NCBI GenBank assembly: GCA_019744775.1
Contig: JAIETZ010000009.1
Span: forward strand, 1 to 64,000
Direction of reading: 5' to 3'
Source of the DNA: Candidatus Obscuribacterales bacterium
GTDB taxonomy: Bacteria > Cyanobacteriota > Vampirovibrionia > Obscuribacterales > Obscuribacteraceae
DNA length: 64,000 nt
In this document: piece after piece, positions 52,118-62,500 of the stretch
Layout: each line of letters opens with the position of its first letter
Position numbering within the stretch: position 1 is the first letter of the stretch
Position numbers and translations under genes: made by a program
Notes under the pieces: generated by a model
Told to the model about the DNA's origin: nothing
The model's database searches: none
Seen by the model: the letters and a program-made list of their open reading frames with translations, nothing else

Positions 52118-53341
52118 TCATTTCGCTGACTTATCCAGATGAGACACCCATATCTCTGCGGCTTTCGTGTGCTGTTCGATTCCCGAACCGAATCTTTCCA
52201 TGAGAATCTGTAGATCTTGTCTGTTTTGACCACTATCCACAACTGGTGCAAATACGACAAACTCTTGTTTGGCTGTTTTTCGCTGAAACGGAATAATTAT
52301 CTCAACGCCATTTGCGCTGTTTTTATTTTTGCTGGCATATTCCCGCACTCTAACCACGACGGTATCCCTTTTCTTGTTATCTAACGTGATAAACGCATTG
52401 AACGCTAACACTGCATTTGTTGCGCGAGAGGGGTTTTGAATCAGCCACTGCTCTCCCTTTTTTATGCCCTCCTCCATGGTGGGACATGCTAAGCGATCCA
52501 TCTTTTTGCCTTTCTTGGATTCAGACATGACAAATGGAATCAAGTCCTCCCCGTCAGCAACACAATAGATAGCATGGGCAGCCGCAAAGCCAGCCAGCTT
52601 CATGCTATCCTCCGATTCAGTTGCATCGTCCTCATTGAAGTCGAGCCATCCGTTTGATAGTGGTTTGAAACTGGGCCACCACCTGTACCAACCTCTACCG
52701 ATCACTCGTTCCTCCTTCACAAGACTAAATAACCGAGTGTCCTCGTCGAGTTTTGAATTGTCGGCCAAGACCAAAAGCTTTCCGGTAGGGACGCGAATGC
52801 TTTTCTTCTCCCCTGTTTTGATGGAAGAGCCGGTTCCGTATTCTTCGAACTTATTAGCAGGTTGCCTAGCCTCATTGCCATATTGGTTTTCGACGAAGTT
52901 CTTTCCATTTAGTACAACGCCTTTACCGCCGACGAATTCTATTTCGTCTCCCGGCAGTCCTACTACTCTTAGCGCATAAACTGCCTCGTGGGGTAGCATG
53001 GGCAAGCCCGTAAGGCGGCCAGGCACATATATGGGGCTTTGCGATGGCTCATCCACATAGTAACTTACAATTTCTCCACGAGTGTGCGCATAGCCAAATA
53101 TCCGCGACATCTTTTCAAAGACAACCCGGTCATTCCGCATTAGGGCCGGTCGCATTCTGTCTGTTGAAATCACACGTGCCTCGATAAATTGTCGGACGAA
53201 GACAAGCTTCGCTAGCAGGAGTAGCACACCTATTCCTATCAGCATAAATACGAACGAAATACGATTCACAGATAGACTCCTCGCCTGATCGGATTCTGCC
53301 GAGTTTGACGTGCTTGTTTTCCGAGTTAGGGTTACGGACAT
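52118..53341 (-). CDS. Inactive signal-peptidase-I homologue fused to an uncharacterised domain
   Basis: From the ATG at 53341 the protein has 407 residues: one transmembrane helix (28-50), then the S26 signal peptidase core. Family boxes are clear: ISTDRMRPALMRNDRVVFEK (box B), YALRVVGLPGDEIEF (box D) and LADNSKLDEDTRLF (box E). The catalytic Ser, which precedes Met in box B, is Arg62 here; the general base Lys, which precedes Arg in box D, is Leu124. Both are lost, so peptidase activity is not expected. The C-terminal domain (about 255-407, AAHAIYCVADGEDLIPFVM) is a separate uncharacterised unit. It starts 10 bp inside the preceding gene. The longer start at 53413 is not favoured. Confidence 0.78.
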   Translation of the reverse strand: MSVTLTRKTSTSNSAESDQARSLSVNRISFVFMLIGIGVLLLLAKLVFVRQFIEARVISTDRMRPALMRNDRVVFEKMSRIFGYAHTRGEIVSYYVDEPSQSPIYVPGRLTGLPMLPHEAVYALRVVGLPGDEIEFVGGKGVVLNGKNFVENQYGNEARQPANKFEEYGTGSSIKTGEKKSIRVPTGKLLVLADNSKLDEDTRLFSLVKEERVIGRGWYRWWPSFKPLSNGWLDFNEDDATESEDSMKLAGFAAAHAIYCVADGEDLIPFVMSESKKGKKMDRLACPTMEEGIKKGEQWLIQNPSRATNAVLAFNAFITLDNKKRDTVVVRVREYASKNKNSANGVEIIIPFQRKTAKQEFVVFAPVVDSGQNRQDLQILMERFGSGIEQHTKAAEIWVSHLDKSAK

Positions 53342-53922
53342 TGGCTCTCTGGAAAGCATGAGCTGAGCAGACTCAGAATTATAGATAAGCAACCAATGGT
53401 AATCAGCACCCAATTCCCTTTAGTGAATTTACTGTTGATTTCACAATTAGGATCTGCCGTGAGATTGAGATCGTTAATGTACTTCTGAACGAATAATAGT
53501 GGGACAAAAGCAAGCAACCCCACAAAATCTAAAATCATTGTCGAGTGACTAAGCATCGTATTTAACTTGGTGTCAGCCATCACAGTCGGCATCTTTTCCA
53601 AGTATTCTGCAATTACTCCAGCCAAAAAAATGATAAGCCAACTTACATAGATACGAATAGGAGAAAAGCTTTCCGCAAATCCCATCGATGTGCCAGTATC
53701 ACGAATTTCTAGCAGCAACGAATGCAAATACAGCGGACTAAACCAAGATCGCATGAAAGGCAGAACTTTCTTTTTCTTGATGTTGCTGACATACAACCAA
53801 TTTTTAAACGTCCACCACAACAAATAAAAGTTGAGGGTGCAGACCGACATAACGGTCAATTTAAATCTTGAAACAGGAAAGAAGCAAGGTGTCTTTGCTG
53901 CCACAATGGTGCTTGTCGTCAT
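53332..53922 (-). CDS. Four-helix membrane protein, uncharacterised family
   Basis: The 196-residue protein has about four hydrophobic helices (about 22-42, 88-110, 127-147 and 170-190). Its N-terminal motif FPVSRFKLTVMSVCTLNFYLLWWTFKNW, then FMRSWFSPLYLHSLL, is what I recall from an unnamed bacterial integral membrane family, so the fold is probably conserved although the function is not known. Its 3' end overlaps the pseudo-signal-peptidase gene by 10 bp, so the two are translationally coupled and may form a membrane complex (inference). There are 134 bp to the upstream GT51 gene on the same strand. Confidence 0.75.
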   Translation of the reverse strand: MTTSTIVAAKTPCFFPVSRFKLTVMSVCTLNFYLLWWTFKNWLYVSNIKKKKVLPFMRSWFSPLYLHSLLLEIRDTGTSMGFAESFSPIRIYVSWLIIFLAGVIAEYLEKMPTVMADTKLNTMLSHSTMILDFVGLLAFVPLLFVQKYINDLNLTADPNCEINSKFTKGNWVLITIGCLSIILSLLSSCFPESQCP

Positions 53923-54056
53923 TTAAGTAGCTTCTCCTTGGTGTTTGGCAAAGAAATTTGATCCGCTCAACAAGTATGGACCGAGCGTGTTTACCGAATT
54001 TCAGTATATTAGCAAATTGGACAATGAGGATCTTTAGGAATAGATTCTGAACATGT

Positions 54057-54929
54057 CTAGGCGCCATTGGCGGTGGCGAGCGCGTTTGAGAGCACATAGT
54101 TAACCTCAGCCTGTAGTCGTTTTGAGAAAAGAACCTCGCGATTTGCCTGCGTTGCTTGCTCTTTATTTATGTATCCGTATTCGGTCATCATTCGTATAAC
54201 TTGATGCTGTCGGGCTCTCGCAGCAGGAAGATTCTCCTTGAGACTGAGTATTGAAGGAGATCGGATCAATCCAGCCAAAAATGCTGACTGAGCTATAGAC
54301 AGATTCGCTGCTGGCACCCCAAAATATGACTTTGAAGCAGCTTCAATTCCGTAAGCGCCACGACCAAAATAGATGGTATTGAGATATGCTTCCAGAATTT
54401 GTTTTTTTGTATACCTATCTTCGAGCTCCACCGCCAAAATCAACTGACTGAATTTTCTCCTTGCTGTGCGCTCTTCTTGGTCCAAGAAGCCGATCTTTGC
54501 CAACTGCTGGCTAATCGTTGACGCACCCTCGATCATGTTTCCGGCTTTTATATTGTCAATTCCTGCTCTGATCAATCCTAGCGAATCAATTCCACGGTGT
54601 TCATAAAATCGATGATCCTCTGCAGCTAACACCGCCAATTGCATCCACTTTGATATCTTTTCAAGCCTCGCATTCCTAAGACCAGAACCATGCGACTCAG
54701 ACTCTATGGTCGATAGATCAGCGGGCGGTACCTTCAGATATGTTGACAATAGTGGCAGTCCTAGGACTCGTAACAACAGCAGTGTCGTGATACCACACAG
54801 TAAAAGCCACAAAACCATATTAACTTTGCGATTCAGTCGTCTCACATCACTCAACCTTCCGAAGCCATCCAGATTTGGAGACGAATTGAAATTGGGACGG
54901 CTCAAATGTGCTTGCCAAAGCGGCGCCAA
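54057..54929 (-). CDS. Monofunctional GT51 peptidoglycan transglycosylase
   Basis: The protein polymerises lipid II into glycan strands at the outer face of the inner membrane. After a soluble tail and one transmembrane helix (about 38-62), the GT51 domain shows the catalytic Glu104 in LAAEDHRFYEHRG, EGASTISQQLAK, the RRKFSQLILAVELE block, LEAYLNTIYFGRGAYGIEAA and SLSIAQSAFLAGLIRSPS-like sequence (here AANLSIAQSAFLAGLIRSP). There is no transpeptidase domain, so it is MtgA-like or a PBP1 derivative cut after GT51. The in-frame start at 54929 is a TTG without a Shine-Dalgarno sequence; an ATG at 54818 just before the helix is the alternative. Confidence 0.86.
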   Translation of the reverse strand: MAPLWQAHLSRPNFNSSPNLDGFGRLSDVRRLNRKVNMVLWLLLCGITTLLLLRVLGLPLLSTYLKVPPADLSTIESESHGSGLRNARLEKISKWMQLAVLAAEDHRFYEHRGIDSLGLIRAGIDNIKAGNMIEGASTISQQLAKIGFLDQEERTARRKFSQLILAVELEDRYTKKQILEAYLNTIYFGRGAYGIEAASKSYFGVPAANLSIAQSAFLAGLIRSPSILSLKENLPAARARQHQVIRMMTEYGYINKEQATQANREVLFSKRLQAEVNYVLSNALATANGA

Positions 54930-55038
54930 ATGGTAATGAGTGTTTTATTTGATTTATCATTTGATGCCATGAAGATTATGCACTTAGAATATAGCATCTA
55001 ATGGACCCTCAACAGCTCGGAACAATAGAAGCGTCACC

Positions 55039-55602
55039 ATGAACAAATTTAATTCAGAGCAATTCAAAGAAAAACTTATGTACGGTTGGAGAATGTTTTT
55101 CTTTGGTTGGCTAGGTGCAATGAGTGTCATCGTTGCAGTGGTACTGTTAATCACATGCTCGTTTTCTCTTTGTTCCCTTCCATCGGACAGTGACCTTATT
55201 TCACAGTTTCAAAAGAAAAAGCCTGTTCTTCTCAAACTTCTCGAAATGTCCAACGAAGATGAAGATTTTGGCAAAATTACTAGAGAATATCTTGGCCCTG
55301 CTTGGGTTGGAGGCATGCCCAAGGATAGATGGCAAACTTACCGCGAGCTGTTCGACTCATTAGGACTGCGCTATGGAGTAGAGCGCTTTGATAATGACGA
55401 TGTTCTTTTCGTAGTAGCCACTAATCTAGCTGGTGATGCGAAAGGATACGCTCATCTTTCGCACCCTCCAAAACGGTTGGTTTCCAGCCTGAAGGATTCA
55501 TCGTTGTTTGGTTTTTGGCACGACAATCCTAGTCTCGGTGGTGGACCAGCGTACCGAGAAATTCAAGATGGTTGGTATCTATGTCGCACAATTCAGTTTT
55601 AG
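55039..55602 (+). CDS. Membrane-anchored protein with the repeated domain of the gene at 56244
   Basis: The 187-residue protein has one transmembrane helix (18-42) and an outer domain (about 52-187). By eye this matches the domain that occurs twice in the gene at 56244: FQKKKPVLLKLLEM, WQTYRELFDSLGL, DVLFVVATN, and the end REIQDGWYLCRTI. The KGYAHLSHPP segment (KGY, then PP, then L..SL) resembles an unnamed bacterial family I recall, usually a small lipoprotein-like protein. No catalytic residues are seen. It is the first of three co-oriented genes with 36 and 8 bp spacing. Divergent from the GT51 gene. Confidence 0.7.
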   Translation: MNKFNSEQFKEKLMYGWRMFFFGWLGAMSVIVAVVLLITCSFSLCSLPSDSDLISQFQKKKPVLLKLLEMSNEDEDFGKITREYLGPAWVGGMPKDRWQTYRELFDSLGLRYGVERFDNDDVLFVVATNLAGDAKGYAHLSHPPKRLVSSLKDSSLFGFWHDNPSLGGGPAYREIQDGWYLCRTIQF

Positions 55603-55638
55603 CCACATAACACGCTAATTGGAGATGTTTAAAGAGTC

Positions 55639-56235
55639 ATGAAACCTATCAATGCTGCTCAAATCGCAAGACACATATCCAAAATTGCAACAATTGGGAT
55701 CTTGGGATGGACGTCAGCATTGCTAACACTAGTTATCGCTCTAAGCTCTGGTTACAGTTTCATCAACCCGGCTTTTAATTCGTTTTTATACTACTCCCTG
55801 TTCCTTTGTCCAACGATACTCTTTATTTTCTTTGCTGCCTCAACACTACCAAAAGTTCTGAAAGTCATTGGCTGCTGTGTTCTTTTGCCGGTTTCATTGG
55901 TTTTTCTTCTAGGACTGCTCATGACCGGTCCTGATATTAGAACTATCCTTCGGGATAGGGTTGACCCATCAGATGAGTTCATTTGTTCAGTACCGCTTGG
56001 CTCCAGTAGAATCGCCGCCTATAGGACTAACGGTGGTGCTACAACGAACTTTGGAGTGGATATAATGCGACAGCGCTTTATTTTGCCAGGAATTAAACAT
56101 TCAGTAGGCGAACGCTACGAATATGGAGCAGCCGATGTTGAACTGGATCCCATAGACAAACTACAACTCAGATGCCACATATGTCCCACTGACGATGGCG
56201 TATTTTTGGAAGATTCGATAATTACTGCGCAATAG
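55639..56235 (+). CDS. Membrane protein of the YRTNGGATT-type uncharacterised family
   Basis: The 198-residue product has three to four hydrophobic helices within residues 15-110 and a C-terminal soluble part with the motif AYRTNGGATTNFGVDIMRQRFILPGIK. I recall this motif (YRTN-C/G-GATT-x-FG...LPG) from a widespread family of small envelope proteins without known function. Placement between two proteins that share a repeated domain, spaced by 36 and 8 bp, suggests one operon. I infer an envelope location, but no biochemical role can be stated. Confidence 0.7.
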   Translation: MKPINAAQIARHISKIATIGILGWTSALLTLVIALSSGYSFINPAFNSFLYYSLFLCPTILFIFFAASTLPKVLKVIGCCVLLPVSLVFLLGLLMTGPDIRTILRDRVDPSDEFICSVPLGSSRIAAYRTNGGATTNFGVDIMRQRFILPGIKHSVGERYEYGAADVELDPIDKLQLRCHICPTDDGVFLEDSIITAQ

Positions 56236-56243
56236 GACTAAAC

Positions 56244-57740
56244 ATGTCACCTCAATACCTTGACTCATCTGAAACAACACTTCAAATGAGTAATGCACAA
56301 ATTTTTTTATATGGCGTTTTTGCAGCAATCGTTGCGCTTTGCTTTACTTGCTGTACTTCCATAGGCTTCTGGCAGTTGAGCAGGCTTGATTCCGAATCCG
56401 AAAACGATTTTAATCAATCCAATAATGTTCAAACCAACATTGACGAGTCGGCTTTGAATGCCAGCTTGTTGAAATACTTTGGTCACTCAAATTCTACGCA
56501 CATTGAACACAGGCTACTCAAGCCCTATATCGACCCGTATAAAAATGCCTGTTACCCTTGGGTATATTTATTCGACAAGACCAAGCTATTATCACAAGGC
56601 ATCACAGAGGTACATGGTGGTAAGACAGATTTACGCATTACTAAATTTGTGAATTCAAAGATGATAGTGGAAGAGCCAGCTTTTGCTGCCGACCTAGTGC
56701 CTGGTTATGCGTCAATAAAACTGTTCAAAATTGCACGTCGAGCCGAACCTCAACTCACGAGCATGAAGAATGCATCTGAGCTCAAGCAGATTTTCCAACA
56801 GAACGAATCGATCTTTGAAAAAGTCAAAGAAATGCTTGCATCGGAAAAAGCCATTAATAGAGTGAGCTTCTGTCATATCAATGATATTTGGATACCGGAC
56901 TATCCAGAACTACCATCGCGAAAAGATACAATTTTGCCTACAAAGCGCTACAACGAGTACCTAACGCTACTTGATCAATGTCAGTGCGTGTCTGTATCGT
57001 ACGGTTCTGAAATAGGGCGCCGTCTACCAACTTCCGGTAATGAGATTTGGTTTCAAATGTGGCAATCGTTAACTGGTCAGCAGCTAGCAGAATGGATTGT
57101 GTACTCCAAAGATGGTTCCATTCCGAAAAATTCGCTTAAACAAGGTAGCATAGACTCATTTGTACCTAGAGATAAAAACCACAGATGGGTTGCTGTGCCC
57201 ATTAATACAAATTGGTATATCGTGCGCGGTTATCGCGCCAATCCATTAGGCACACCGGATGAGTACAGCCCATCTGACGAATGGTTAAGGACCTTATATC
57301 GTGACCAAAAGAATAAATTGGCAGAACTTGCAGATATGCTTGCTCGCGACAGATCGCTTCAGGCAGTCGAGCCTGACTATGTTCAAGCGTGGAAGTCCAG
57401 CAGGCTACCAATAAATAAAGCTATAGAGCAAGGAATCATAACGTCTTCCCGACATCAAAAATACTTTGACCTCTTAGTATCACTTCGTTGCATAAGTTGT
57501 GGTTTCGAGTCCGAAACATCTAAAAACAACACAAACGAACTTTGGTACTACTTCTGGATGTCCAATCATAATAAAGCGGGCAAGTTTCTCGTCTTCAATA
57601 AATCAGGACGATTGCCGTCTGGGTGCACTGAGGTAACCAGCACGGACATAGGGGATTTCAGGCATTCAAAGGAGACGCTGTATAAATGCGTAAGGATTGG
57701 ACCTCAATGGTTTATTGTGTCCGCGGTTTGGGCCGAGTAG
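56244..57740 (+). CDS. Membrane-anchored protein with two tandem copies of an uncharacterised domain
   Basis: The 498-residue protein has a transmembrane helix at 19-43, an additional domain to about 170, then two tandem copies of one domain, about 181-327 and 350-494. Matching landmarks are FEKVKEMLA / LAELADMLA, KRYNEYLTLL / RHQKYFDLL, NEIWFQMWQS / NELWYYFWMS, WIVYSKDGSIP / FLVFNKSGRLP and NTNWYIV / PQWFIV. The gene at 55039 carries a third copy. Duplication and divergence within one operon is evident; the copies share no recognisable catalytic residues and could be binding domains. It follows 55639 by 8 bp. Confidence 0.72.
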   Translation: MSPQYLDSSETTLQMSNAQIFLYGVFAAIVALCFTCCTSIGFWQLSRLDSESENDFNQSNNVQTNIDESALNASLLKYFGHSNSTHIEHRLLKPYIDPYKNACYPWVYLFDKTKLLSQGITEVHGGKTDLRITKFVNSKMIVEEPAFAADLVPGYASIKLFKIARRAEPQLTSMKNASELKQIFQQNESIFEKVKEMLASEKAINRVSFCHINDIWIPDYPELPSRKDTILPTKRYNEYLTLLDQCQCVSVSYGSEIGRRLPTSGNEIWFQMWQSLTGQQLAEWIVYSKDGSIPKNSLKQGSIDSFVPRDKNHRWVAVPINTNWYIVRGYRANPLGTPDEYSPSDEWLRTLYRDQKNKLAELADMLARDRSLQAVEPDYVQAWKSSRLPINKAIEQGIITSSRHQKYFDLLVSLRCISCGFESETSKNNTNELWYYFWMSNHNKAGKFLVFNKSGRLPSGCTEVTSTDIGDFRHSKETLYKCVRIGPQWFIVSAVWAE

Positions 57741-57776
57741 ATTAACCTAGACTGATGAAATTGGTGCGTCACAAAA

Positions 57777-58103
57777 TTAACGAACCTCTGGGATTAGCAA
57801 ACGCGATTGAGCCGCTTTACATATCGACCGAGCCTCGGGTGATGGTGGACAATTATTTTGAACCTCGTCATTTAACTTGACCATGATCATCGGGGGATTT
57901 TCCAAATAGGAAAATAGGGTTTGGATTACTGGTGGCAAATAGCTCTGATCCAATTCGTATTTAAACGAATGTCTTTCACGGATCAGATTAGCCGAGAGAT
58001 CGACCGTAACATCAACCTGTCCTAATCTTTGACATTCGAACAACATTGAGAATTCCGGATCAGCAATGGAAAAACTACAATTACCCTGCAGAGTTTCATA
58101 CAT
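57777..58103 (-). CDS. Small unrecognised protein, possibly immunity-like
   Basis: The 108-residue product has the ORF ends and charge pattern of a real small protein but no family I can name. The N-terminus MYETLQGNCSFSIADPEF and the central segment FKYELDQSYLPPVIQTL resemble small WapI-like or other immunity-type proteins in general shape (beta-rich then a terminal helix). This is a weak impression. It lies on the minus strand next to a decayed ORF at 58141 and an IS3 remnant, in the accessory stretch before the RHS gene. Confidence 0.5.
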   Translation of the reverse strand: MYETLQGNCSFSIADPEFSMLFECQRLGQVDVTVDLSANLIRERHSFKYELDQSYLPPVIQTLFSYLENPPMIMVKLNDEVQNNCPPSPEARSICKAAQSRLLIPEVR

Positions 58104-58140
58104 TGTTAACGGCTTTTCAAAACCGTCGCTTTTTGGCTTC

Positions 58141-58350
58141 TTAGAGATGAGCTAACTGGGACTGGAGATACCTGCTAACAAATTGCTGTTGCCTAGTAAT
58201 TATTATGATCGCTGCGGAAAGCAACAGGCAATCGAACCGTGATTCAAATGTCCATTTTTTATGTTCATCGTTGCCATCCCTCAGCACATGAATAACCTGT
58301 GCCCATCTGGCAGGACTGCTCTTGCTCGGTAGTTCGTCTATGAGCTGCTC
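58141..58350 (-). pseudogene. Decayed ORF fragment
   Basis: On the minus strand a 69-codon open stretch ends with TAA at 58141-58143. It reads like protein (ARWAQVIHVLRDGNDEHKKW, then ESRFDCLLLSAAIII) but has no plausible start, and stop codons appear just upstream in the same frame (58351-58353, about 58370), where the sequence still looks coding. I interpret it as the 3' remnant of a broken gene of unknown family, next to the IS3 remnant. Without comparison this is only a moderate call. Confidence 0.45.
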
Positions 58351-58413
58351 TTATAAATTCTCGTCAAGCTAACTCACTCGATTAAGCCAAAACGCAGCGG
58401 TCTTCAAAAACCG

Positions 58414-58707
58414 ATGACACAGTATGCAAGTGAGATATTCAGAGCGGAGCTACAGTTTCGTGGCTGTGTACAGAGCATGAGCGAAAAAGGTAATTGTTGG
58501 GACAATGCTGTGGCCGAAAGCTTCTTTGGTTCGCTGAAGCGCGAAGCTATTTACCACTACCGCTTTGCCACCAAGTCTCAAGCAAAAGCCTGCATCTTTG
58601 ATTACGTCGAGGCCTTTTACAACAGATTTCGATTACATTCCGCGTTGAATTACTTAATGCGTTGTATTCGCTTTGCTCCGGTTCGCTTATTCGATTTCGT
58701 CCGGTGA
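58414..58707 (+). pseudogene. IS3-family transposase (OrfB) remnant
   Basis: The 97-codon ORF contains the C-terminal integrase signature of IS3-family OrfB: QYASEIFRAEL, MSEKGNCWDNAVAESFFGSLKREAIYHYRF with the catalytic Glu, and EAFYNRFRLHSALNYL. The first two catalytic Asp regions are missing because the ORF begins at the QYAS block, normally preceded by DRGSQ. After HSALNYL the sequence diverges (MRCIRFAPVRLFDF). It is a truncated, non-functional fragment. No terminal inverted repeats or target duplication were identified. Confidence 0.85.
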
Positions 58708-59132
58708 ACGCATACTTAACACCGACCCAAAAAGGTCAAAAAGTAGAAAAGGCGGCCTAGGCGTTCATTTCAGAACTCCGAGTCCGCCTAATCTAGGGAA
58801 GGACAAATTCCAATTCTCCAAAGTATCTGCTCCGCAGAACTTCTCGTAATTCATTGAAAACACTTGTTGATTCGTCCTACTAGTTGTTGCCTACTGTCGA
58901 TAAACCCATACAAGTTTAAGTTACTTTGTGTAGTATACTTTCAACTCTAAATGCATTGAACAGAGGCTTGAAAAGTCTAAGATTGCTATCATTGTCGCTG
59001 ATAGACATTAGTTATCAAAGATGTTAGACATGTATTTTTGTATAAGAAAATAACAGACACTTGCAAGGTTTGATTTGAGGGAACTTAGTCGGATTCAACT
59101 ATAAACCTTGAATGATATTAAGGACTTTCATA
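58708..59132. other. Intergenic region with possible IS scar
   Basis: No supported gene in these 425 bases. AGGCGG and CCGCCT (58750-58790 region) are short inverted arms that might mark an element end. A TATACT at 58934-58939 could serve as -10 box for the DUF1493 gene, but no good -35 precedes it. A 27-codon minus-strand frame near 58790-58875 looks protein-like but is too short to call. Confidence 0.4.
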
Positions 59133-59534
59133 ATGGAAAACCAAAATTCAAATTCAGAGGAAGCATTGATCGAACGCGTAAAAGCTTTCTTGGAAATCGA
59201 AGTCAATGCCAACCGTGCTGAACTTACTTCCGCGACCAGATTATTCCATGATCTAGGAGTAACAGGTGATGAAGCAAGTGATCTGCTCGTGCATTTTCAA
59301 AAAGAGTTCAACGTGGACATCAAAGATTTCTCGTTTGATGATCATTTTACGTGGGAAGTTCCGTTACTTTGGCCAATTGTTCCATTCTATTGGCCGTTAT
59401 TGCTAAATTCATCCTTTCGAAAACAAGTATTTCGATCTAGAAAGCGCACCGACTCGATGTTAATTCCTCTTACCGTCGCAGACCTAGCTAACGCAGCAAA
59501 AACGGGTCGTCTTCTCAGTCATTCACGTAATTAA
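59133..59534 (+). CDS. DUF1493 acyl-carrier-protein-like protein
   Basis: The 133-residue protein (ATG at 59133, AAGGA 8 nt upstream; a longer frame to 59112 is discarded) matches the DUF1493 family. It has an acyl-carrier-like helical start (EEALIERVKAFLEIEVNANRAELTSATRLFHDLGVTGDEASDLLVHF), then FNVDIKDFSFDDHF and the C-terminal PLTVADLANAAKTGRL. The Ser that carries phosphopantetheine in true ACPs (DSL) is absent here; the corresponding point reads GDEASD. It is therefore not an acyl carrier. The gene ends 45 bp before the stop of the RHS gene, in convergent orientation. Function unknown. Confidence 0.78.
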   Translation: MENQNSNSEEALIERVKAFLEIEVNANRAELTSATRLFHDLGVTGDEASDLLVHFQKEFNVDIKDFSFDDHFTWEVPLLWPIVPFYWPLLLNSSFRKQVFRSRKRTDSMLIPLTVADLANAAKTGRLLSHSRN

Positions 59535-59578
59535 AGGAAGCAACGGGAGTGGATAAATACCACCCCCGTCTTAACTAT

Positions 59579-62500
59579 TTACCGGAGTTGCCTCATTGTT
59601 GAACTAAATGCTTCATTTTCAGCATTCAGTTCAACCTTTCTTGCTAGTTCATTTATCACTATCTTACCAACTGCAATCGGGAAGGTAAACCTACGAGCCA
59701 ACGTAGAAATCTTGCCTGACATTGCTCCACCCTCCCAGAGTGATGGTGTATGAACCCTTATCCCAGGCGGAAACCGTTCGTCAGCAATTCCAGCAAGTCC
59801 ATTCAAGATTTGCGACGCTTTACCCGCTACTACCGAACCAGTTGTAGTCCAACCTCCCTTAGCACCTAGCACCATCGGCTTTGGCCACGGCATCAACATG
59901 GATGCTGATCCAACCAATACAGCATTATGCCGTAGATCAATATCAGCAATTGATGAGTTGTGTGCATCTTGATATTGAAGCGATAGCCTCTCTGAAACCG
60001 ATTGGCTAAGATGCGGGGGTGGCGGCGCTTGTGGAGCCCCGGCAACCGGAGCCGCCGAACCAGTGCTTGCAGGTGCTGCGTGCGCAGCTTGGCCAAACAG
60101 GGTCCAATACGCTAATGCTGCCATGCCTCCAAAAGCAAAGATCGGAAGCAGACTAAAACCGACAGCATAAGCTCCCAAACCAATGCCTGTGCCTAGGAGC
60201 AAGCCATGCCCGAAAGCCGCAGTGCCCGGTCCTATGGTTGAACCAGCACTAGCTGCAACTGAAACGCCTCCTTTTAACAAGGTGCTACCAATTTTTATGG
60301 CATCTTCAATGAAGAGTCCCGTTGAATCACTAAAATTAACCGGATTACTGCCAGCATATTCATAGAGATTCATTCCACCTTTATACCCAATCGGATCAGG
60401 CTGTAGGAATCGTCCAATCTTCGGTGAGTAGTGACGAGCTTTGTAGAAGTACAAACCCGTCTCTACCTCGAAGAATTGCCCGGTGTAGCCTATGCGAATG
60501 TCTGTCAACGAGCCAGAGACAAGTTGTCCATACGGCGCATAGACATTAACGCGCGTCGGCATTCCTGTCGAGTCCGTGGTCAGAATTGTCGAGCCGGTCT
60601 CGTCACCGTGCAGATAAGTGACAGTGCTTGTCCCGGCGTCAACAACAAAGAGACATTCATCGAGCGACATACCATACACATAGCGGCGGAGCAAATTGCC
60701 GGTCGTGTTGTCGTATTCTTCTATCCGTTGCATTCCGGAATAAAGATAGCGAGTTGCACTTGTGCTGGTTGTCTTCAGTGCCAGCCTGCCAAATGGGTCG
60801 TACTTATATGCAACTGTTCCGCTAGGTGTTGTTACCGATATGAGCCTGCTTTCGAGGTCATAAGCATAGGTGTTGGTGCCATCGCTAACCAAGCAACCAT
60901 TGTCGTCATAGGTGTATGTTGCACTATCAACTGACGGATACTGATTTAAGTTATTGGCAGATCCATAAGTAATGGTGGTTGCAAGACTTGGCTGCCACAA
61001 GAAATTGCTATTGCTTGCTCTCTTGCTTTGGCTTTGCCCAGCGTCATTTCTTGAATAACCAAAATCAACTCTTGACGGCGTGCCAAGTGTTGTATTTGGT
61101 TTCAAGCCACCAATAGTCATGCCGACAAGATTGTCCACCTTATCATAGCTGTAGCCTTGACCAGTACCATTGCCGTTTGTCTGAGACATTCTTCTAGAAG
61201 CTGTGTCATACGCAAAAGCAACACTTGCGTTGAAGCCGGATACAGAAGTCAATCTGTCCAGTTGATCAAACACGTGCGTTACGTTATTACCACTACCTGG
61301 ATAAGCAAGAGTGGTGACGTTGCCGTTTTTGTCCATGGTGGCAGTTACAGTCTTGCCATCAGGATATCCTTCTTGATACATACGCCCTGCAGCGTCATAT
61401 GCAAGAGAGAATGTGCCGGTGGATGGATCACCAGTGACAGTCGGTGTTGATACCGTCAGCGTCCTTCCAGCTAGGTCGTAGGTGTAACTAACAACAGCAC
61501 CTGAGCTTGGCGTTTTAGTGACCAGCCTGTTGAGGCGGTCATACGCAAAGCCGTAAGTAATTTCAGCTCTTGTTGTAGCCGAAAGAACATTATCGAGATT
61601 GTCATAGGTAACAGATTCGAGCGTTGAATCAGGATATGCAGTCTCAATAGGTCTGTCGAAGCCGTCGTAGGTGTATTGAGTTGTGTTGTTGTTGGCGTCT
61701 TTGACTGACTGGACTTTGCCGTTGGTTGTGTACGTCAGCGTCTGCTGCACTTCCCCATCGACAGAGCTTGTAAGCGGTCTGCTAATAGCATCGAAAGTAG
61801 ATGTAGCAGCATGACCAAGAGCGTCAGTGACTTTAGACACGCGGCGCAAGTTGTCGTATTCGTAGCGGGTGGGAATAGCCTGGCTGCCTTCGCCGACATT
61901 AACAGGACCGACAACAGTTGCCACCTTATCATCGATGGTGAAAGTTGTTGTAGTTACCTGAGTGTTGGAGTCGGTTGATGCCAGGCTGCGCGTTTGAATG
62001 ACATTGCCGTTGGCATCGTAAGTCATATACGCTGCTTGATTTTGTGGCGATGGACCTGTCACTTGTGTTGGTTGCCTGTTGGCGTTGTAGGCGGTTGTCG
62101 TGACATTGCCTTTGGGATCAGTCGACGTCAGCATATTGCCTACAGAGTCGTAGGTAAATTGACTCTGAATGTTCAGTCCGCTTGGATTAATGCTTGTAGA
62201 AAGCAAGTCATGCGTTACTGAGTCATAGCTGTTGCTTGTGACAATGCCTGTCGGGTCAGTTGTAGTGAGCACCTGTCCGAAAGTATTGTAGGTGTAGGCA
62301 GTTGTCGGCTGAGTGCCGCCAATAGTTGCTGCCGGCTGCACAACTTGCGTTACTTTGCCTGCGCCGTTTTGCCCAACTCCTGCATATGACTTAGACGTCA
62401 CCCGGCTTTGCGGATCAGTCACGGTGGCAACTTGGCTTGTCCAGGTTGAGTCATAGGTCATTGTGGTGGTGCGGCTACTTAATCCAGAGCTTGGCTTGGG

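What the first reader, a model, noticed from the sequence alone, without database searches (positions are those of the whole stretch)
52118..53922. Signal-peptidase-I pseudoenzyme coupled to a four-helix membrane protein
Boxes B, D and E of signal peptidase I are well kept, yet the catalytic Ser and Lys are Arg62 and Leu124. Keeping the scaffold with both catalytic residues gone suggests a binding role (for example holding signal peptides or a partner). It is fused to a separate C-terminal domain and overlaps a membrane protein gene by 10 bp. I know of no described function for such a pair.
Basis: partly seen in the sequence, partly recalled or inferred. Interest (0 to 1): 0.65.

Follow-up and report, generated by a model that had tools for sequence, protein, structure and literature searches.

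The report
Dead signal peptidase with membrane partner
A bacterial gene keeps the shape of the enzyme that trims export tags off proteins but has lost both of its cutting residues; it overlaps a membrane-protein gene, and several relatives of this bacterium carry similarly damaged copies also overlapping a membrane-protein gene, so it probably binds proteins rather than cuts them.

Summary
Window 52118-53341(-) encodes a 407-aa protein matching SPase I (PF10502 E 4e-20; TIGR02227 E 8e-25). Gap-free alignment puts Arg62 at the Ser nucleophile and Leu124 at the Lys base. No lysine lies between residues 78 and 139 and Ser59 falls on a conserved Pro column, so no alternative dyad is apparent. The genome has two intact SPase I genes. 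Pseudo-SPases are not new: S. pyogenes SipA (closest solved structure, Z 12.4) and S. aureus SpsA also lack the dyad.

New here: in this bacterial family (50 genomes held, Obscuribacterales) accessory SPase I paralogues lost a dyad residue in several lineages. The small clade holding the window protein (long branch, support 96/84 and 89/79) consists only of such proteins. Each has an upstream membrane-protein gene whose stop overlaps its start by 4-10 bp. In relatives that partner is UPF0259/YciC-like; in the window it is an unrelated DUF4234-like protein never found beside an SPase elsewhere. The architecture recurs, this exact pair does not.

Most likely: a non-catalytic, membrane-anchored, SipA-like binding factor. 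New variant of a known kind.

The parts
52118..53341 (-). SPase I-like pseudoenzyme P0001, 407 aa (stop included in coordinates)
   Evidence: PF10502 E 4e-20, TIGR02227 E 7.6e-25; AlphaFold model matches SipA/LepB/SpsB
53195..53251 (-). N-terminal transmembrane helix, residues 31-49
   Evidence: hydropathy; helix 13-52 in the model
52673..53227 (-). Peptidase_S26 match, residues 39-223
53156..53158 (-). Arg62 codon (AGA) at the position of the catalytic Ser (box B)
52970..52972 (-). Leu124 codon (CTA) at the position of the catalytic Lys (box D)
52694..52768 (-). box E region, residues 192-216; D194, N195, D201 kept, five near-invariant residues replaced
52139..52612 (-). C-terminal extension, residues 244-401, absent from other SPases; weak relative only in L035
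   Evidence: low-confidence in the model
53332..53922 (-). P0002, 196-aa membrane protein (3-4 helices), DUF4234-like family
53332..53341 (-). 10-bp overlap of P0002 stop and P0001 start
53934..53939 (-). AAGGAG ribosome-binding-site-like sequence before P0002
   Evidence: read by eye

Best explanation
P0001 is a catalytically dead accessory SPase I. Shown by sequence: an N-terminal membrane helix, then an SPase-fold domain with Ser->Arg and Lys->Leu, then an extra C-terminal domain; its gene overlaps that of a small polytopic membrane protein. Inferred: the two are co-translated and form a membrane complex in which the SPase-like domain, outside the cytoplasmic membrane, no longer cleaves but uses the scaffold and its peptide cleft to hold an exported client or signal-peptide-like segment (as proposed for SipA), with the C-terminal domain giving specificity and the polytopic protein anchoring or relaying. 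True signal-peptide cleavage is done by the two intact SPases of the genome.
For: Dyad replaced in a gap-free alignment; two intact paralogues; 407 codons open and 22 of 38 near-invariant positions kept despite a very long branch, where about 2e-10 of random 407-codon frames would stay open; closest solved fold is SipA, a functional non-catalytic SPase homologue (PMC4049620). Sub-clade {L005, L006: Ser->Thr; L082: Lys->Thr; window: both} supported 96/84 and 89/79, all with an overlapping upstream membrane gene. In L020 the catalytic Ser is the only one of 38 near-invariant positions lost (37/38) and it has the same kind of partner: selective loss of catalysis, not decay. Purifying selection on noncatalytic relatives (TK pair dN/dS ~0.2, NK ~0.06). 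No dyad-intact canonical SPase has a multi-helix upstream gene (0 of about 30) against 7-8 of 9 noncanonical or accessory ones.
Against: No orthologue of P0001 itself was found, so selection on it cannot be measured. Its partner P0002 is from a different family than the partners of its relatives (profile comparison: no similarity) and is not beside an SPase in other genomes. Arg62 and A123 change the cleft, and box E is eroded, so peptide binding is uncertain. Mutating the cleft of SipA did not abolish its function (PMC4049620), so even in the precedent the cleft may not be the working surface. No sortase in the genome, so not a SipA-type sortase pilus.
Confidence: 0.5

Rival explanations
1. 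Scaffold only: the SPase domain is merely a membrane-anchored extracytoplasmic platform for the C-terminal domain; the old cleft has no role.
For: 16 of 38 near-invariant positions lost, including much of box E and the residue before the dyad; unique C-terminal extension; SPase-TPR fusions with dead dyads in six relatives look like the same use of the fold as a carrier.
Against: Close sub-clade members L005, L006 and L082 have no C-terminal extension yet are also noncanonical.
Confidence: 0.25
2. Degenerating gene: an island-borne accessory SPase that lost function and is drifting.
For: Long branch (1.7-2.2 changes per site); located in a stretch absent from the same place in a congener with lower GC (0.42-0.45 against ~0.48); loss of both dyad residues given 16/38 losses has probability ~0.17 by chance (computed).
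Against: Open frame of 407 codons with tidy gene overlap and recognisable fold after extensive divergence; relatives with similar divergence (L131, L137) keep the dyad, relatives with little divergence lose it.
Confidence: 0.15
3. Active peptidase with a rearranged catalytic centre.
For: Ser59/Thr60 lie close to the nucleophile position; Ser and Lys swaps are known in other hydrolases (general knowledge).
Against: No Lys between residues 78 and 139; Ser59 sits on a conserved Pro column; box E residues that position the base are also changed.
Confidence: 0.05

Closest known systems
Streptococcus pyogenes SipA (PDB 4n31; PMC4049620)
   Same: SPase I fold, N-terminal anchor, both catalytic residues replaced (Asp/Gly there, Arg/Leu here); best structural match to the model (Z 12.4 over 137 residues)
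   Different: SipA works in sortase-dependent pilus assembly beside pilin and sortase genes; here there is no sortase in the genome, a C-terminal domain is added and the neighbour is a membrane protein
Staphylococcus aureus SpsA
   Same: Inactive SPase I paralogue lacking both catalytic residues, beside active SPases in the same genome (PMC12445088)
   Different: spsA adjoins the active spsB (from general knowledge); here the pseudoenzyme is at its own locus with a membrane gene
LepB / SpsB (active type I signal peptidases)
   Same: Fold, membrane helix, box B and D backbone motifs
   Different: Dyad lost; box E eroded; extra C-terminal domain
Accessory SPases of the same bacterial family: L005, L006, L082, L020, L113, L126
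   Same: One N-terminal helix + SPase domain, upstream polytopic membrane gene overlapping by 4-11 bp; four of the six lack a dyad residue
   Different: Partner is UPF0259/YciC-like, no C-terminal extension, fewer substitutions

Membership tests
Type I signal peptidase (S26A) | Homology over boxes B-E | tested here: met
   PF10502 72.9 bits (cut-off 22.9), TIGR02227 87.7 bits (cut-off 47)
Type I signal peptidase (S26A) | Ser-Lys catalytic dyad | tested here: not met
   Arg62 and Leu124 at the two columns
Type I signal peptidase (S26A) | Signal-peptide cleavage | not testable with these tools
   needs an assay
Non-catalytic SPase-like proteins (SipA/SpsA kind) | SPase fold with both dyad residues replaced | tested here: met
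Non-catalytic SPase-like proteins (SipA/SpsA kind) | Peptide-binding cleft retained | tested here: inconclusive
   I58, M63, L67, Y122 kept, A123 and R62 changed (mapping to LepB cleft from general knowledge); no coordinates available to inspect
SipA-type pilus assembly factor | Sortase/pilin locus | tested here: not met
   no sortase (PF04203) match in the genome; neighbours are transglycosylase, DUF4234-like, thioredoxin-like, ClpC
DUF4234 (PF14018), for P0002 | Pfam model match | tested here: inconclusive
   P0002 itself no match; relatives of the same family match, L074 E 1e-9 over cut-off, others below it
Conserved P0002-P0001 two-gene system | The same two families adjacent in other genomes | tested here: not met
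   homologues of P0002 in about 20 genomes have no S26 gene in the flanks held (mostly about 1.5 kb a side); no P0001 orthologue in 50 family genomes or by the GTDB scan

The most novel reading that the evidence does not exclude
A two-gene module specific to Obscuribacterales: a small polytopic membrane protein (interchangeable family) translationally coupled to an accessory SPase I that has lost catalysis in several lineages, working as a membrane-embedded signal-peptide or client-capture complex rather than a peptidase. The window holds its most derived form, with both catalytic residues gone and a client-specificity domain added.
Probability: 0.35. Interest if true: 0.65.

Novelty: new variant of a known kind. 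Interest (0 to 1): 0.45.

Why it matters
Bacterial pseudo-signal-peptidases are known from few Gram-positive cases, and only SipA has a demonstrated role. A diderm lineage in which accessory SPases lost dyad residues in several branches (Thr, Ala, Asn, Asp or Arg for Ser; Thr, Arg, Gln or Leu for Lys), often with nearly all other conserved positions kept and with an overlapping membrane partner, gives a comparative set for asking what a non-cleaving SPase fold does.

Tried and rejected
Alternative dyad from Ser59 and a nearby Lys: rejected (no Lys in residues 78-139; shifted alignment would break M63-x-P65-x-L67). P0002 as remote relative of the UPF0259-like partners: profile comparison found nothing. 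Conserved P0001-P0002 pair: not found. Defence-system match: none in PADLOC. C-terminal domain fold: model too poor (pLDDT 29-57). Promoter and terminator scan uninformative. Papers on pseudoenzymic SPase I beyond SipA/SpsA: none found in the held library.

Full report
What is there. On the minus strand two genes overlap by 10 bp: P0002 (53332-53922, 196 aa) and P0001 (52118-53341, 407 aa). P0001 has one membrane helix (res 31-49), a Peptidase_S26 domain (res 39-223; PF10502 E 4e-20, TIGR02227 E 7.6e-25) and about 160 further residues with only one weak relative, in a 443-aa protein of genome G009 that is not an SPase (E 6e-8). The window's family is Obscuribacterales: loci of the same search that carry names are Obscuribacterales/Melainabacteria MAGs.

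The dyad. In alignments with 71 dyad-intact family members and the genome's own two intact SPases the nucleophile column holds Arg62 and the base column Leu124, without gaps. The chance that both dyad residues are among 16 losses of 38 is about 0.17, so in this protein alone the double loss is not striking; the relatives make the case.

Relatives. Among distinct S26 domains in about 50 genomes of the family, most are Ser/Lys but a set is not: Thr/Lys (L005, L006), Ala/Lys (L020, L114, L119), Asn/Lys (L117, L123, L125), Asp/Lys (L112), Ser/Thr (L082), and Ala/Arg, Ala/Gln or Ser/Arg in a group fused to tetratricopeptide-type repeats (L128-L130, L132, L133, L135). L020 keeps 37 of 38 near-invariant positions and lacks only the catalytic Ser; L005 and L006 keep 36; conversely the diverged L131 and L137 keep only 23 and 26 but retain the dyad. 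Loss of catalysis is thus uncoupled from general decay in this family. The Thr/Lys pair evolves under purifying selection (dN/dS about 0.2) as does the Asn/Lys trio (about 0.06, dS near saturation). Whether Thr can act as nucleophile in these is untested.

Tree and partner. P0001 groups with L082 (96/84) and then L005/L006 (89/79); its branch is long (1.7-2.2), so this is suggestive. L005, L006, L082, and outside this sub-clade L020, L113 and L126, each follow a UPF0259/YciC-like membrane gene whose stop codon overlaps the SPase-like start by 4, 4, 4, 4, 11 and 8 bp. L113 and L126 keep Ser/Lys, so the partner is not tied to loss of the dyad. Canonical SPases with a close upstream gene (about 30) have no multi-helix one. 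In the window the upstream gene is a DUF4234-like protein unrelated by profile to the UPF0259-like ones; its homologues elsewhere are not beside S26 genes. Hence the arrangement is recurrent but this pairing of families is so far unique. The rows are not independent: the L005/L006 pair differs by dS of only about 0.5-0.6 although in two genera, while canonical SPases of species within one of those genera differ by dS 1.4-2.8, which suggests transfer of the two-gene unit.

Locus. In a congener (G002) the TPR gene, clpC and the thioredoxin-like gene are in the same order, but P0001, P0002 and the transglycosylase gene are missing there, and GC falls from about 0.48 to 0.42-0.45 from 53 to 60 kb: an accessory stretch.

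Structure. The AlphaFold model of P0001 is confident over most of the SPase domain (pLDDT mostly 75-95, lower around 150-170 and 196-202) and poor from about 231 on. Foldseek finds SpsB, SipA and LepB; the second aligner ranks SipA first (Z 12.4, 137 residues) ahead of LepB (Z about 10.5). The alignment fed to the model consisted of SPases, so the fold is expected; only the similarity in size and shape to SipA adds a little.

Mechanism. Best supported is a non-catalytic membrane-anchored binding factor, by analogy with SipA, which is essential for pilus polymerisation although Asp and Gly replace the dyad (PMC4049620). Shown: dyad loss, membrane helix, gene overlap, recurrence in relatives. 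Inferred: interaction with P0002, binding of exported clients, role of the C-terminal domain. It is not a SipA-type pilus factor: the genome has no detectable sortase. Rivals are a scaffold-only use, decay, and unusual catalysis, in that order.

Novelty. Pseudo-SPases are a known kind (SipA; SpsA listed as inactive in PMC12445088). The additions are the diderm lineage, the repeated dyad loss, the overlapping membrane partner and the C-terminal fusion: a new variant of a known kind.

Noticed in passing
L128:3947-5068, L129:4001-5044, L130:1479-3980, L132:2624-4648, L133:2219-4747, L135:2549-4438: A well supported (100/99) group of SPase-like proteins with Ala/Arg (or Ala/Gln, Ser/Arg) at the dyad, fused to tetratricopeptide-like repeats and often long low-complexity tails (348-843 aa), in six genera of the family.
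   Followed up: partly
L117:1980-2636, L123:2962-3639, L125:2986-3660: SPase paralogue with Asn instead of the catalytic Ser, syntenic in three species of one genus, strongly constrained.
   Followed up: partly
L131:3806-5857: ClpC-type N-terminal repeats fused in one frame to a dyad-intact SPase I domain in genome G022.
   Followed up: no
L005/L139 and L006/L138: Thr/Lys SPase plus UPF0259-like partner are much closer between two genera (dS ~0.5-0.6) than canonical SPases are within one genus (dS 1.4-2.8), suggesting horizontal transfer of the pair.
   Followed up: partly
L057:1258-1956, L053:1297-1968: Homologues of P0002 carry an N-terminal zinc-ribbon-like cysteine motif before the membrane part (Pfam zinc-ribbon hit just under cut-off in L057).
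   Followed up: no
window 53000-60000: GC drops from ~0.48 to 0.42-0.45; with the missing genes in the congener this looks like a variable island beside clpC.
   Followed up: partly
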